From contig NZ_CP146022.1 of assembly GCF_036967205.1 (NCBI RefSeq), positions 3,038,001-3,102,000 of the forward strand: a DNA stretch of 64,000 nt, given 5' to 3'. The position numbers were made by a program, and so were the translations under genes. The notes under the pieces are model-generated. The model saw only the letters and a list, made by a program, of their open reading frames with translations. It ran no database searches and was not told the DNA's origin. Positions 1 to 4,605 of this stretch are shown here, piece by piece (position 1 is the stretch's first letter; each line of letters opens with the position of its first letter). This DNA is from Streptomyces sp. Q6. Its GTDB lineage: Bacteria; Actinomycetota; Actinomycetes; Streptomycetales; Streptomycetaceae.

Positions 1-1928
1 TCGTAGTCTTGGGCGACTTGCCTCGCATCCTCGACAGCCGCTTCAAACCGACCAAGCCGGACCAGGGAGAAGGCGTAGCTGAGCCGTGACCCCAGGGTGA
101 CAGCGTGGTCAGGTCCCAAGTGAAGAGCGCACTCTTGCGGAAGTGGCATCATCGCGCCATCGACCTCAACAGCAAGGTCGGTTATTGGCAGGAACTCAAG
201 CAGGTGAGCTCGAGACTGCAGCGTGAGCGGGTGCTCCTTTCCGAGCACCCGTTCCCGTCCGTCTGTGGCGCGTTGAAGAAGGGTGACGCCCTCCGCCGCA
301 TGCCCAAGCTGCTGCAATGGGTGGTTGAGCCCGAAATAACTGTCCAGTGTGTCGGGGTGGTCGGGCCCGAAGAGGCGTTCCCGGTCCGCAAGCACCCGCC
401 GGAGAATCGCTTCAGACTCCTCGAACCGGCCGAGGCGGAAGAGCGCCCGGCCGGCCCGTGCGTGCGCGGAGAGCACCAACCTGTGTTCCGGACCGAGCTT
501 GGGTTCCGTGATAGTGGCCGCGGTAGAGGCCAACTCCCGGGCTGACAGGTAATCGCCAGTACGGTGGAAGGCGCACGCCAGCCGTACCGCGACATCGAGA
601 GCGCTAGCCACCACGGACGCATCAGCGGCATGGTGTAGCAACGCGAGGATATGCGGTGCGAGGAGGCTCAACCCTAGGTCCTGCGGACCCCGCTCAGGGA
701 TGGTTGGTACAACGGCGTCCAGTAACAAGGTTGCCGTACTGGTGAGCTGCCTTACCTCCTCGTGCGGGATGCCAGCCATCACACTGGCAAGCAGCACAGC
801 ATGGGTTTGAATGCATCGCGTGCTGACGTCAATCATCGTGGTCAGGGACTGATCTAGTAGTCCACGCAGCGCCACTTCGGCCCGCGGTCGAGGGACGACA
901 CTATTGATCTGCGGGTTGTTCAAGAGCGTAAGCGGCAGTGGCTCAGGCCCAAAGCAGGCGAGCAGACGGAGCAGGGAGGCCGATTCCTGCACTCCCTGGG
1001 CTGCGAGTGCGTCGAGAGATAGCTGCCAGGTGCGGGTGATCAGGTGCCGGTCGTCCCGTTGGACCAGAGCTGCAGCCCCTTGGTCGATAAGGCCCACGCG
1101 CTCCTGGCCTTCGAGGTGCTCACCGTATTTCTCCATGGTCCACGGATCGATGACCTGATGGGAGAGGAAGCCACCCGCCAGGGTGAGCGCAAGAGGGAGC
1201 CGTCCGAGCCTGTCCGCGATCTCGGCAGCTTCCTCCAGCGTCCCCGACGTTGGCGCAAGGTCGCACAGCACCTGCGCTGCCGCCTCGCGAGGCAGTACCC
1301 CGACGTGATGCAACTCGGCATGCGGCCACCATTGAGCCGCGGCCCGACGAGTAGTGACCAAGACCGTGCCGCGCGGATTGGCACGCAGCCAGCCGCCATC
1401 CTGCAGGATCTCCGGAGAATCTGCGTTGTCGAGCACCAGCAGCCAAGAAGATTCGGACGCTTCGAGTCGCTCCCATACTAGATCCGCAGGCGCCCGTAAC
1501 CCGCTTCGAGCAGCGTTCAGCTGGCCTTCTGCCGCCCCTCTGTCCGCAGCCACGGCTAGCATGCCGCTGCGTAGACTGGCGCGATCGGCCGCATTGACCC
1601 AAAACCCGATGCGGTCACTTTCTGTCGTTGCGAACTGAAAAAGCGACCGAGCAACTGCGGTCTTACCGCAGCCGCCCATGCCATGAAGCACGTAGACCTG
1701 GTCGCCTACCCCCGGCGCGACTGCGGCTTGAAGAGTTCGCATCAGTTCGCTGCGGTCACGGAGCACCAACGGCGCTCGGCCACCGGTCGGCTGGCGTACT
1801 GATTCAGTTCCCGCCCACGCGCCCGGTCCGACGTCTCCATGGTGGTGGTGTTCGACAATGTGCTGATCGCCGGAAGCTTGGTAGACCCGGCCGTTATGGT
1901 CGGCGCGACCGTCCATGGCGCCCGTCAT
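1..1928 (-). CDS. NB-ARC/TPR (NLR-like) STAND protein, C-terminus cut by window edge
   Basis: I read this as one open frame of 642 codons from ATG 1928 to the left edge, with no stop, so the gene is partial. In order it shows a short N-terminal motif GRVYQASGDQHI (residues about 13-24) followed by a His run, a P-loop GMGGCGKT (about 83-90), a Walker B-like WLLVLDNA (about 163), a GxP-type LGRLPLAL (about 241), then tetratricopeptide repeats from about residue 486 (FxLGRFEESEAILRRVLADRERLFGPDHPDTL type). This is the NB-ARC/TPR layout of bacterial STAND NTPases (NLR-like sensors). Its ATG overlaps the stop of the upstream 136-aa gene (ATGA), so the two are likely co-translated. Third-base use is more A/T-rich than in genes to the right, which suggests acquired DNA. 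The ligand and output are unknown. Confidence 0.9.
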   Translation of the reverse strand, partial: MTGAMDGRADHNGRVYQASGDQHIVEHHHHGDVGPGAWAGTESVRQPTGGRAPLVLRDRSELMRTLQAAVAPGVGDQVYVLHGMGGCGKTAVARSLFQFATTESDRIGFWVNAADRASLRSGMLAVAADRGAAEGQLNAARSGLRAPADLVWERLEASESSWLLVLDNADSPEILQDGGWLRANPRGTVLVTTRRAAAQWWPHAELHHVGVLPREAAAQVLCDLAPTSGTLEEAAEIADRLGRLPLALTLAGGFLSHQVIDPWTMEKYGEHLEGQERVGLIDQGAAALVQRDDRHLITRTWQLSLDALAAQGVQESASLLRLLACFGPEPLPLTLLNNPQINSVVPRPRAEVALRGLLDQSLTTMIDVSTRCIQTHAVLLASVMAGIPHEEVRQLTSTATLLLDAVVPTIPERGPQDLGLSLLAPHILALLHHAADASVVASALDVAVRLACAFHRTGDYLSARELASTAATITEPKLGPEHRLVLSAHARAGRALFRLGRFEESEAILRRVLADRERLFGPDHPDTLDSYFGLNHPLQQLGHAAEGVTLLQRATDGRERVLGKEHPLTLQSRAHLLEFLPITDLAVEVDGAMMPLPQECALHLGPDHAVTLGSRLSYAFSLVRLGRFEAAVEDARQVAQDY

Positions 1929-2335
1929 CGCTCAGAGATGCGCTGGTCGCGGCCGGCCTGGTAGATCCTGGCGTGGCCCGAGGCGGTGGCATGCTGCGTC
2001 ACCTTCGGGGCGGCGCCTGTGTCTGGAGCGAGCTCGTCCAGCAGTCTCCGCAGTTCCTCAGCCACCTCCGGCCGGGCCACAAGAAGTCGTCTGATCCGAC
2101 CTTGCCACTCCGCTTGAAGCTCAGCCTCGACATCTTGATCACTAGCCTGCGAGGCGGCCAGGAGCTCCTCGCGGGTGACATCGAGTTCTGCTGCCACGGC
2201 TTCAGCTCGCTCAGCGTGCTCACGGCGCCAGAGGGACGTGATCCCGTTCCGTACGCGTTCCCAGGCGTCAGTGGCCACCAGTGTGACGATGGTGGTTCCT
2301 GCGCTACTCGCCAGTGCGACGATCTCCGGATCCAC
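1925..2335 (-). CDS. Small helical protein with C-terminal YQAG-type motif; candidate NLR effector partner
   Basis: A 136-aa protein whose stop overlaps the start of the NB-ARC/TPR gene by 4 bp. Residues 4-35 are hydrophobic to amphipathic helix (ALASSAGTTIVTLVATDAW), and about 40-110 are charged helix rich in Glu, Ala and Arg. The last 16 residues carry ARIYQAGRDQRI (122-133), which closely matches the motif near the N-terminus of the next protein. Small all-helical proteins with such a C-terminal motif next to NLR genes are known in actinobacteria as putative membrane-acting effectors whose motif pairs with that of the NLR. That role here is inference; an accessory subunit of the STAND protein is the alternative. 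Confidence 0.8.
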   Translation of the reverse strand: MDPEIVALASSAGTTIVTLVATDAWERVRNGITSLWRREHAERAEAVAAELDVTREELLAASQASDQDVEAELQAEWQGRIRRLLVARPEVAEELRRLLDELAPDTGAAPKVTQHATASGHARIYQAGRDQRISER

Positions 2336-2813: not shown

Positions 2814-3044
2814 CTACCGCTGATTCCCAGGTCCCCGGACGTCGCCCGTCGCGGGGGTCTCTGTATGTACGGCGGCCCATAACGTGCGGCCGTTGAGGCT
2901 GTTGGCCAGGAGGCCGAATCGGTCGGCCTCAGCCACTGCTTTCAGGGCCTCCCGCCACTTGTCGGCTGGGAGCGAATCCGGTACCTCTGTCTTGATCACC
3001 AGGTGATCGGAGTGCTCTGTGACGCGGGGAGTGAGTCCGAGCAC
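2814..3044 (-). CDS. Small hypothetical protein (76 aa), divergent from GntR gene
   Basis: From GTG 3044 the frame encodes 76 residues with natural composition, including HLVIKTEVPDSLPADKW and a central helix (REALKAVAEADRFGLLANS). No family recognised and no ribosome site is visible at the start. Its 5' end overlaps the 5' end of the divergent GntR gene by 26 bp if both starts are right, so one start may be misplaced or the transcript may be leaderless. Gene plausibility rests on amino-acid composition only. Confidence 0.45.
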   Translation of the reverse strand: MLGLTPRVTEHSDHLVIKTEVPDSLPADKWREALKAVAEADRFGLLANSLNGRTLWAAVHTETPATGDVRGPGNQR

Positions 3045-3819
3045 CGTTAACCGAGCAGCGGTGCCTTCGGCGCGTACGCCCGAAGCCCTTCGCCTCGCCG
3101 ACGAGTTCCGCCGGCTCATCGCGGAGCACATGTGGGCACCCGGGGACCCGCTCCCCTCCCGCACGCAGATCGGTCAGGAACACGGGGTCGGCGAGAACGT
3201 GGTCCGCCGGGCTCAGGAACTCCTGATCTCGCAAGGCGTGCTCGAAGGTCGCGCTGGGTCCGGCACATACGTCGCCGAGCCTCGGCAGCGAGTGCGGGTC
3301 GTACGGTCGTCGGCGCGGGAGCAGCCAGGAGTCGCACCGTTCCGCGCTGACATGAAGGCCCTTGGCCGACAAGGCGACTGGGAGAGCCGGACAGATGCAA
3401 AGGTGCCGGCACCGGCGGACATCGCCGCTCGGCTCGGTCTCGCCGAAGGAGACCTGTGCGTCCGCACCACGTACGAGTTTCTGGCCAACGGCAAGCCGGT
3501 CCAGCTGTCGACGAGTTGGGAGCCGTGCGACCTCACCGCTGGCACCCTCGTCGTTCTCCCCGAGGGCGGACCGCACGCGGGTGCGGGAGTCGTGAACCGG
3601 ATGGCGGCTATCGGGGTCACCGTCAGCCACGCGGTGGAGCAACCGGAGCCGCGCACAGCAACGGCCGAGGAGGCGTCGCTGCTGGGCATCCAGAAGGCCA
3701 CACTGGTCACCCACATCCGGCGGACGTACTACAGCGATCAGGGACGCCCCGTTGAGACGGACATCGTGGTGCCGACCGCGCTTTGCGAGATCGTTTACGA
3801 GATCCCGATCAATCCTTGA
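3019..3819 (+). CDS. GntR-family transcriptional regulator (HutC/UTRA type)
   Basis: A 266-aa regulator. Residues about 20-90 form the GntR winged helix: RLADEFRRLIAEHMWAPGDP, then GENVVRRAQELLISQGVLEG and the wing GSGTYVAEP. Residues about 110-260 form a UTRA ligand-binding domain (FLANGKPVQLSTSWEP, VTHIRRTYYSDQGRPVETD, ending EIPINP). GTG 3019 is preceded by GGAG with a 6-nt gap, which supports this start; GTG 3031 and 3061 are alternatives. Regulators of this kind often control conjugative-element genes in Streptomyces (KorSA type), but no integrase or transfer gene is visible here, so a leftover of such an element is possible. Ligand unknown. Confidence 0.9.
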   Translation: MTRGVSPSTVNRAAVPSARTPEALRLADEFRRLIAEHMWAPGDPLPSRTQIGQEHGVGENVVRRAQELLISQGVLEGRAGSGTYVAEPRQRVRVVRSSAREQPGVAPFRADMKALGRQGDWESRTDAKVPAPADIAARLGLAEGDLCVRTTYEFLANGKPVQLSTSWEPCDLTAGTLVVLPEGGPHAGAGVVNRMAAIGVTVSHAVEQPEPRTATAEEASLLGIQKATLVTHIRRTYYSDQGRPVETDIVVPTALCEIVYEIPINP

Positions 3820-3967
3820 CCGCTCCGCGCCCTTGCAGCCCCAATGACTAACCATCACATCTCCCGCACCCTGTGGTTCCGCAAGGATTTGGCACACGAG
3901 AGCCGGAGACAGTACCCAAGTAGTCGCTTCAACGTCCTGCACCCTATCGATCGACAGGAGCCCCAAA

Positions 3968-4024
3968 GTGGTGACAGCGACAACCAGCCTCGCTACAGCA
4001 ACGGTGCGCGCCGCGACGAAGTAA
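3968..4024 (+). CDS. Possible 18-aa peptide ORF
   Basis: AGGAG (3956-3960) lies 7 nt before GTG 3968. The frame reads 18 codons (VVTATTSLATATVRAATK) to TAA 4022, and a hairpin with a T-run follows 3 nt later. The compact set of ribosome site, tiny ORF and terminator looks organised, but no known leader peptide is recognised. The peptide is Thr/Ala-rich. Confidence 0.3.
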   Translation: MVTATTSLATATVRAATK

Positions 4025-4027
4025 GTC

Positions 4028-4049
4028 AGCCCTGTATATGGGGCTTTTT
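4028..4049 (+). terminator. Rho-independent terminator candidate
   Basis: Arms AGCCC (4028-4032) and GGGCT (4041-4045) enclose an 8-nt A/T-rich loop and run into TTTT. The stem is short for a GC-rich genome, but the T-run is unusual here and fits an intrinsic terminator for the short ORF in front of it. Confidence 0.5.
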
Positions 4050-4605
4050 GTGATCTTGTCTCCTGGCTCCGGGGTACATCGGCGCCTGGCCGCCGACTGT
4101 CGAATGCGTGTCGAAGGCAGCGTTACCACGGGCAAGAAGAGAGAACCGCGCCCAGGTCAGCGACCAGTACCGGATGAACACGCCAGCGCCCTCTGAGCGC
4201 TTGGCCGCAGGTTCGCTCGATGGCCCCAACTCGGTGGGAGCAGCCCGAGGTGTCAGCCGATCGACTACGCACCCGCTGGCGGAAGTACCGCCGCGCGAGT
4301 TGTGGAAGAACTGATCGCGACCCGTGGCTGGTGGCTGGTGACTCGCCTACGGGGCCAGTTGTACAGCAGCGAAGTACAGCGACCAGAGCGACCGTCCACG
4401 CTCGGCGACGGGCGCCATGGGCTCGACTTCGGCCGGTATGACGGTGGCCGACCGTTCTCTCAAGAGCTGTCAGAGCTACGGATAAGAAGGCAGTCGTGCC
4501 GCCTCCGTGCCGGATCGGACAGAGGCCACGGGAGCGCCGAGAGCCGACCGCAGCGGCAAGATGATCAGCCCACGAAGCGACCGAGCACGTCACACCCACT
4601 CACGC

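What the first reader, a model, noticed from the sequence alone, without database searches (positions are those of the whole stretch)
1..2335. NLR-effector pair with a shared amyloid-like motif
The small protein (1925-2335) ends in ARIYQAGRDQRI, and the overlapping NB-ARC/TPR protein has GRVYQASGDQHI near its N-terminus: 7 of 12 positions identical. Actinobacterial NLR genes are known to pair with small helical effector genes through matching amyloid signalling (BASS) motifs, proposed to drive immune cell death. The effector's hydrophobic start suits membrane damage. The ligand and role here are undescribed.
Basis: partly seen in the sequence, partly recalled or inferred. Interest (0 to 1): 0.85.

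Follow-up and report, generated by a model that had tools for sequence, protein, structure and literature searches.

The report
Bacterial immune-sensor and death-effector gene pair
Two overlapping Streptomyces genes encode a likely immune sensor and a small partner protein that carry a similar short, probably amyloid-forming tag, a known kind of bacterial alarm pair; related pairs suggest that such tags are also used by membrane proteins in place of the sensor.

Summary
In detail: 7 of 12 residues match, in two genes overlapping by 4 nt; the NLR gene runs past the window edge (715 aa). Of 64 full-length effector loci (window's own included; sampling favours this motif) all contain YQAGRDQ, and 57 have a matching motif in the next frame; 55 of 57 junctions read ATGA or GTGA. 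Conversely, 18 of 24 NLR matches that reach the N-terminus have the effector directly upstream. A profile of the effector domain finds domains with tails like published BASS3 (11 of 14 core residues), so I call it Bell-type. AlphaFold2 gives five helices and a low-confidence tail holding the motif; no PDB fold matches. The NLR is NB-ARC plus TPR. This is an NLR/Bell/BASS-type amyloid signalling pair, a new member of a known kind; class BASS1 is a guess, since the profiles were not available. Amyloid, ligand and cell death are untested. By-product: in 20 related loci (9 partner families) the neighbour is a membrane protein, not an NLR, with an effector-like motif at its N-terminus. NLR-independent amyloid signalling is a stated open question (PMC7889193).

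The parts
1925..2335 (-). effector gene, 136 aa, GTG start, Bell-type protein
   Evidence: the listed close relatives match from residue 1 or 2; dN/dS about 0.2
2021..2335 (-). effector helical (Bell-type) domain, residues 1-105; helices 3-20, 25-39, 41-63, 67-87, 91-102
   Evidence: AlphaFold2 mean pLDDT 90-96 per ten residues up to residue 100; invariant V17, W25, W36, L51, W77 in 24 rows
2276..2329 (-). first, moderately hydrophobic helix (residues 3-20)
1937..1972 (-). effector-side motif ARIYQAGRDQRI (residues 122-133), in a tail modelled with pLDDT under 50 (106-136)
1925..1928 (-). 4-nt overlap of effector stop and NLR start (ATGA)
   Evidence: sequence; ATGA or GTGA at the junction in 55 of 57 pairs
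1..1928 (-). NLR gene (continues beyond the window edge; full 715 aa, L003:7781-9928)
1857..1892 (-). NLR-side motif GRVYQASGDQHI (residues 13-24)
1101..1700 (-). NB-ARC domain (residues 77-276)
   Evidence: Pfam NB-ARC 7.1e-9
1..593 (-). TPR region from residue 446 (continues outside window)
   Evidence: Pfam TPR_12 5.7e-26, TPR_10 1.3e-22
4195..4215 (+). attachment-site-like repeat of part of the tRNA-Arg gene (20 of 21 identical to L003:6103-6123), far end of a presumed 6.1-kb mobile remnant holding the pair

Best explanation
The two genes form an NLR-controlled amyloid signalling pair. Shown: the overlapping two-gene unit, NB-ARC/TPR sensor, helical effector domain (predicted), and similar motifs at the sensor's N-terminus and the effector's C-terminus, conserved as a pair. 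Inferred: the sensor binds an invader-derived ligand through its TPRs and oligomerises through NB-ARC; the clustered N-terminal motifs fold into a beta-arch amyloid seed; the seed templates the effector tail; the gathered helical domains then disturb the membrane and kill or arrest the cell or hyphal compartment, as fungal HET-S/NWD2 and HELLP/PNT1 do.
For: Motif pair in 57 of 64 effector loci; 55 of 57 junctions ATGA/GTGA. 18 of 24 NLR matches reaching the N-terminus have the effector directly upstream. Among 45 kept of 52 N-domain relatives, cognate effector-tail/next-gene similarity sums to 1808, against a maximum of 1579 in 20,000 permutations. The same domain carries BASS3-like tails (L118, L120: 11 of 14 core residues identical to the Frankia BASS3 peptide printed in PMC8086366). 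In 24 aligned relatives YQAGRDQ is invariant while the domain has five invariant columns (sampling favours the motif). AlphaFold2: helical domain, unstructured motif tail. NB-ARC and TPR. Passages of PMC7889193: BASS at NLR N-termini and Bell C-termini of adjacent or overlapping genes, hypothesised to induce cell death.
Against: No direct evidence of amyloid, membrane action or defence. No PDB fold match (best Foldseek E 4.6), so HeLo/MLKL-like structure is unsupported. The first helix is only moderately hydrophobic. 6 of 24 NLRs lack the adjacent effector, and 7 of 64 effectors lack the partner motif, 5 of them with no NLR motif next to them. Among 74 further effector relatives 25 had no matching neighbour by score. 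Motif classes largely follow the domain tree (12 changes, minimum 5; FastTree, few columns), so co-variation is not independent of descent. NLR and effector motifs differ systematically (effector R versus partner G in 46 of 57). The two best BASS3-like relatives are not paired with NLRs.
Confidence: 0.77

Rival explanations
1. The shared motif is a non-amyloid docking tag: the NLR holds or recruits the effector by ordinary heterotypic binding, perhaps keeping it inactive as an antitoxin would.
For: The two sides differ systematically (R versus G at one core position, A/S/T next to it); the overlapping junction suits coupled translation and a stoichiometric complex.
Against: The same domain family carries several unlike tails that are often matched in the neighbour, including one like the published amyloid BASS3; the motif is short, Q/G-containing and in an unstructured tail.
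Confidence: 0.15
2. The pair is a regulatory or peptide-modification (FxSxx-COOH type) accessory unit unrelated to immunity.
For: The NLR scores 299.4 bits against NCBIfam FxSxx_TPR, cutoff 300.
Against: Below the cutoff, though only just; the matched stretch (58-573) leaves out the N-terminal motif. FxSxx peptides and radical-SAM genes nearby were not searched for.
Confidence: 0.06
3. The similarity is a chance or local duplication artefact.
For: The motif is only 12 residues, 7 identical.
Against: The motif pair recurs in 57 of 64 loci, in Streptomyces and in named records of Kitasatospora, Actinophytocola, Micromonospora and [Actinomadura] parvosata (L039, L057, L060, L073), with purifying selection on the effector.
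Confidence: 0.01

Closest known systems
Bacterial BASS/Bell/NLR amyloid signalosomes (Dyrka et al. 2020, J Mol Biol, not held; described in passages of PMC7889193 and PMC8086366 and in parts 1, 2 and 4 of 6 of PMC12261475)
   Same: Overlapping NLR and small helical-effector genes, motif at NLR N-terminus and effector C-terminus, filamentous actinobacterium
   Different: BASS class not confirmed here; the string YQAGRD is in the text of no held paper (figures and supplements not searched). PMC12261475 reports a BASS1 at residues 9-27 of an NB-ARC protein of Streptomyces sp. 76 (passage), about where the motif lies here (13-24), hence my guess of BASS1
Fungal PNT1/HELLP (PP motif, NB-ARC-TPR NLR)
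   Same: NB-ARC/TPR sensor with N-terminal amyloid motif next to a cell-death effector gene (PMC7889193, passages)
   Different: No sequence homology of motif or effector domain tested or shown; fungal; effector fold match not found in the PDB
NCBIfam FxSxx_TPR (NF040586)
   Same: NB-ARC/TPR chain matches over residues 58-573
   Different: 0.6 bits below the curated cutoff; the N-terminal motif lies outside the match

Membership tests
BASS/Bell/NLR amyloid pair | adjacent or overlapping NLR and small effector genes | tested here: met
   4-nt overlap in the window; ATGA/GTGA junction in 55 of 57 pairs; effector directly upstream of 18 of 24 NLR matches
BASS/Bell/NLR amyloid pair | similar short motif at effector C-terminus and NLR N-terminus | tested here: met
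BASS/Bell/NLR amyloid pair | effector has the Bell domain | tested here: met
   indirect: the N-domain profile finds domains bearing BASS3-like tails (L118 E 1.5e-9, L120 E 3.3e-9), though those two lie beside membrane proteins; the published Bell profile itself was not available
BASS/Bell/NLR amyloid pair | NLR architecture (NTPase plus repeats) | tested here: met
   NB-ARC and TPR
BASS/Bell/NLR amyloid pair | matches one of BASS1-10 profiles | not testable with these tools
   profiles and the 2020 paper not held
BASS/Bell/NLR amyloid pair | motifs form prion-like amyloid and the NLR side seeds the effector side | not testable with these tools
   needs peptides or expression
HeLo/MLKL fold | structural match to solved four-helix HeLo/MLKL domains | tested here: not met
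   13 Foldseek hits in the PDB, best E 4.6, none of this class; second aligner unavailable; viral library not searched
FxSxx_TPR | score above curated cutoff | tested here: not met
   299.4 against 300

The most novel reading that the evidence does not exclude
The same Bell-type effector plus amyloid-motif module is also wired to sensors that are not NLRs. In 20 related loci (5 of 52; 15 of 74; nine partner families) the next gene encodes a membrane protein with an effector-like motif at its N-terminus: single-pass proteins with a presumed outer domain (ricin-type lectin in 3), coiled-coil-like proteins with C-terminal membrane helices, and short multi-pass proteins. Outside ligands could then trigger the intracellular amyloid directly, without an NTPase: an NLR-independent, receptor-type amyloid death pathway in bacteria.
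Probability: 0.45. Interest if true: 0.78.

Novelty: new member of a known kind. Interest (0 to 1): 0.48.

Why it matters
The pair is a clean, testable example of amyloid immune signalling in a filamentous bacterium; only one effector-domain match was found in its genome. [quoted passage not shown] Membrane partners with matching motifs give ready-made candidates.

Tried and rejected
Rejected: chance similarity. A third conserved gene: the upstream genes most widely shared (each with hits in nine other loci) are synteny of one group of loci at variable distance. HeLo/MLKL structural match: none. Filing under FxSxx_TPR: below cutoff. A specific BASS number: the 2020 paper is not held, YQAGRD is in the text of no held paper, and the five related papers (passages; parts 1, 2 and 4 of one) print no BASS1 sequence in what I read; BASS1 stays a guess. 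Motif swapping as independent proof: classes mostly follow the domain tree. 'The motif is unique in its genome': a search with the effector tail found itself and one match at E 1.38, but it also missed the known NLR-side copy, so it cannot show absence. Pfam and PHROGs found no integrase in the two reading frames tried; tblastn of a 65-aa piece matched five plasmid records, two of them annotated site-specific integrase (52.8% and 44.2%).

Rows dropped: 9 of 73 loci without a full-length effector; 7 of 52 before the permutation test; L068 from the alignments, because its effector has an in-frame stop, though it stays among the 64; 4 of 28 NLR matches that lack the N-terminus; 5 of the 57 places were not fetched again. 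One record is counted twice among the 64 (L036 = L041), and L198 and L249 of the 74 repeat loci of the 64.

Full report
What is there. The window is G000:C1:3038001-3102000 of an 8.95-Mb genome. The genus is most likely Streptomyces: a congeneric genome, G301, has a contig of the same length (969,901), with its hit at nearly the same place, as plasmid NZ_CP030074.1 of Streptomyces cadmiisoli. The effector ORF (1925-2335, minus strand) and the NLR ORF overlap by four bases. The NLR continues outside the window and is 715 aa long, with NB-ARC at residues 77-276 and TPRs from about residue 446. The effector has no match in Pfam, NCBIfam or PADLOC above a cutoff; the best E-values were 0.22, 0.023 and none.

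Is the motif pair real? Effector relatives occur in 260 of 392 congeneric genomes (own included) at E up to 0.001 and at 43 loci of the GTDB contig set, mostly Streptomyces, with Kitasatospora, Nonomuraea, Actinomadura, Actinophytocola and Micromonospora, some only as fragments. Of 73 loci examined, window included, 64 hold a full-length effector; all 64 contain YQAGRDQ, but the sampling favours this. A matching motif follows in the next reading frame in 57 of 64. The seven without: L017, L023, L056, L058 and L065 show no NLR motif next to the effector; L068 has a broken effector; L069 has a divergent NLR further on. Of the 57, 55 show ATGA or GTGA at the junction, pointing to translational coupling. 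L009's NLR frame stops after about 75 residues. From the other side, 26 of 150 genomes (own included) hold an NLR match at E up to 1e-60. Of 28 such matches 24 include the N-terminus; 22 of 24 carry the motif by pattern, and the other two (L152, L159) carry a degenerate form by eye; 18 of 24 have the effector directly upstream (within 33 nt), six do not.

What the effector is. In an alignment of 24 relatives YQAGRDQ is invariant; in the domain V17, W25, W36, L51 and W77 are. AlphaFold2 gives helices at 3-20, 25-39, 41-63, 67-87 and 91-102 with high confidence and an unstructured, low-confidence tail from 106. Foldseek finds no solved relative. A profile of the domain alone, searched in 41 genomes, gave 57 matches in 30 genomes at E up to 0.01. 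The 52 regions read from these showed that the same domain carries different tails: the YQAGRDQ class, a VIQAG class, a GGNV class and BASS3-like tails among others (class labels are mine). L118 and L120 end in AVQTGDGNVQVNRF and AVQSGDGNVQVNRF before their last few residues, 11 of 14 identical to the core of the Frankia BASS3 peptide in PMC8086366; three other BASS3-like tails match at 9, 6 and 6 of 14. I therefore call the domain Bell-type, by homology to a carrier of a BASS3-like motif. In 45 kept loci of 52, an effector's tail resembles the start of its own neighbour more than others' neighbours: sum 1808 against at most 1579 in 20,000 permutations. Relatedness is not removed in that test. 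In 18 of the 45 the cognate ranks within the top 5 percent; in many others no matching neighbour was found.

How it probably works. By analogy to NLR/Bell and fungal NLR/HeLo pairs (PMC7889193, passages), ligand-driven clustering of the NLR would seed a beta-arch amyloid that recruits effector tails. The membrane-attack step is inferred: the first helix has a best 19-residue Kyte-Doolittle mean of 1.48, under the 1.6 commonly used for a membrane span (recalled). An asymmetry deserves attention: one core position is R in 57 of 57 effectors but G in 46, R in 10 and H in 1 of the partner motifs. I speculate that this limits self-seeding of one side.

Setting. A tRNA-Arg gene lies at L003:6067-6141. 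A 21-base piece of it (L003:6103-6123) recurs at window 4195-4215 with one mismatch; none was found in 100-200 shuffles. A fragment resembling site-specific integrases lies beside the tRNA and a GntR/UTRA regulator at window 3019-3819. The pair thus seems to sit in a degraded 6.1-kb integrative element, as defence cargo often does (the latter from general knowledge).

A wider finding. Partners of the same effector family are not all NLRs. Besides NB-ARC/TPR and nSTAND1/WD40 proteins, 20 loci have a membrane protein as next gene with an effector-like N-terminal motif: 5 of 52 and 15 of 74. In that set of 74, 14 neighbours were P-loop NLRs, 8 nSTAND1, and 25 showed no match by score. The 20 fall into nine partner families by blastp. 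Three have a ricin-type lectin domain. Ten of the other 17 were also scanned with Pfam, L082 and L090 and eight, and none passes a curated cutoff; seven (L188, L208, L211, L228, L231, L233 and no domain claim is made for these) were not scanned. Own-pair similarity sums to 1199 against at most 1109 in 20,000 permutations, and in 19 of 20 loci none of 200 shuffles of the partner's first 60 residues reached the observed score. L090, L231 and L233 score no higher with their own partner than the median of others. Partner frames in the set of 74 were chosen by best score, which favours matches. Positive charges favour a cytoplasmic N-terminus in 10 of 12 single-pass cases (L118 tied, L082 opposite). 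PMC7889193 asks whether signalling amyloids exist outside NLR pathways. Passages of PMC8195603, PMC12881547 and PMC10907252 found by amyloid, BASS, Bell and lectin terms describe no such pairs, and the titles and abstract starts listed show none. The 2020 BASS paper was not available, so I cannot say that it does not mention them.

Verdict. The window's pair is a new member of a known kind; the membrane-partner variants are the more novel lead.

Noticed in passing
L082:608-1306, L090, L117, L118, L120, L185, L187, L188, L193, L194, L199, L202, L208, L211, L213, L221, L224, L228, L231, L233: Bell-type effectors next to membrane proteins that carry an effector-like motif at the N-terminus, in place of NLRs; three have ricin-type lectin domains.
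   Followed up: partly
L003:6067-7082 and window 3019-4215: tRNA-Arg, integrase-like fragment, GntR/UTRA regulator and a 21-base attachment-like repeat seem to bound a degraded 6.1-kb integrative element holding the pair.
   Followed up: partly
57 motif pairs; window 1857-1892 and 1937-1972: The core position before the D is R in all 57 effectors but G in 46 of 57 partners, a systematic side-specific difference.
   Followed up: no
L168/L173 (G086), L169/L174 (G131), L170/L172/L175 (G120): Three genomes hold an NLR with the motif but no adjacent effector and also an effector with the motif and no NLR motif nearby, suggesting pairing at a distance; effectors are common and the G120 contigs are short, so this may be coincidence or assembly breaks.
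   Followed up: partly
L127, L106, L098, L116, L119, L125: Other effector-tail/neighbour motif similarities of classes that I could not assign to a published BASS family.
   Followed up: no
L210:914-2395(-): Neighbour with the motif and TPRs but no NTPase domain matched by Pfam, another possible non-NLR architecture.
   Followed up: no
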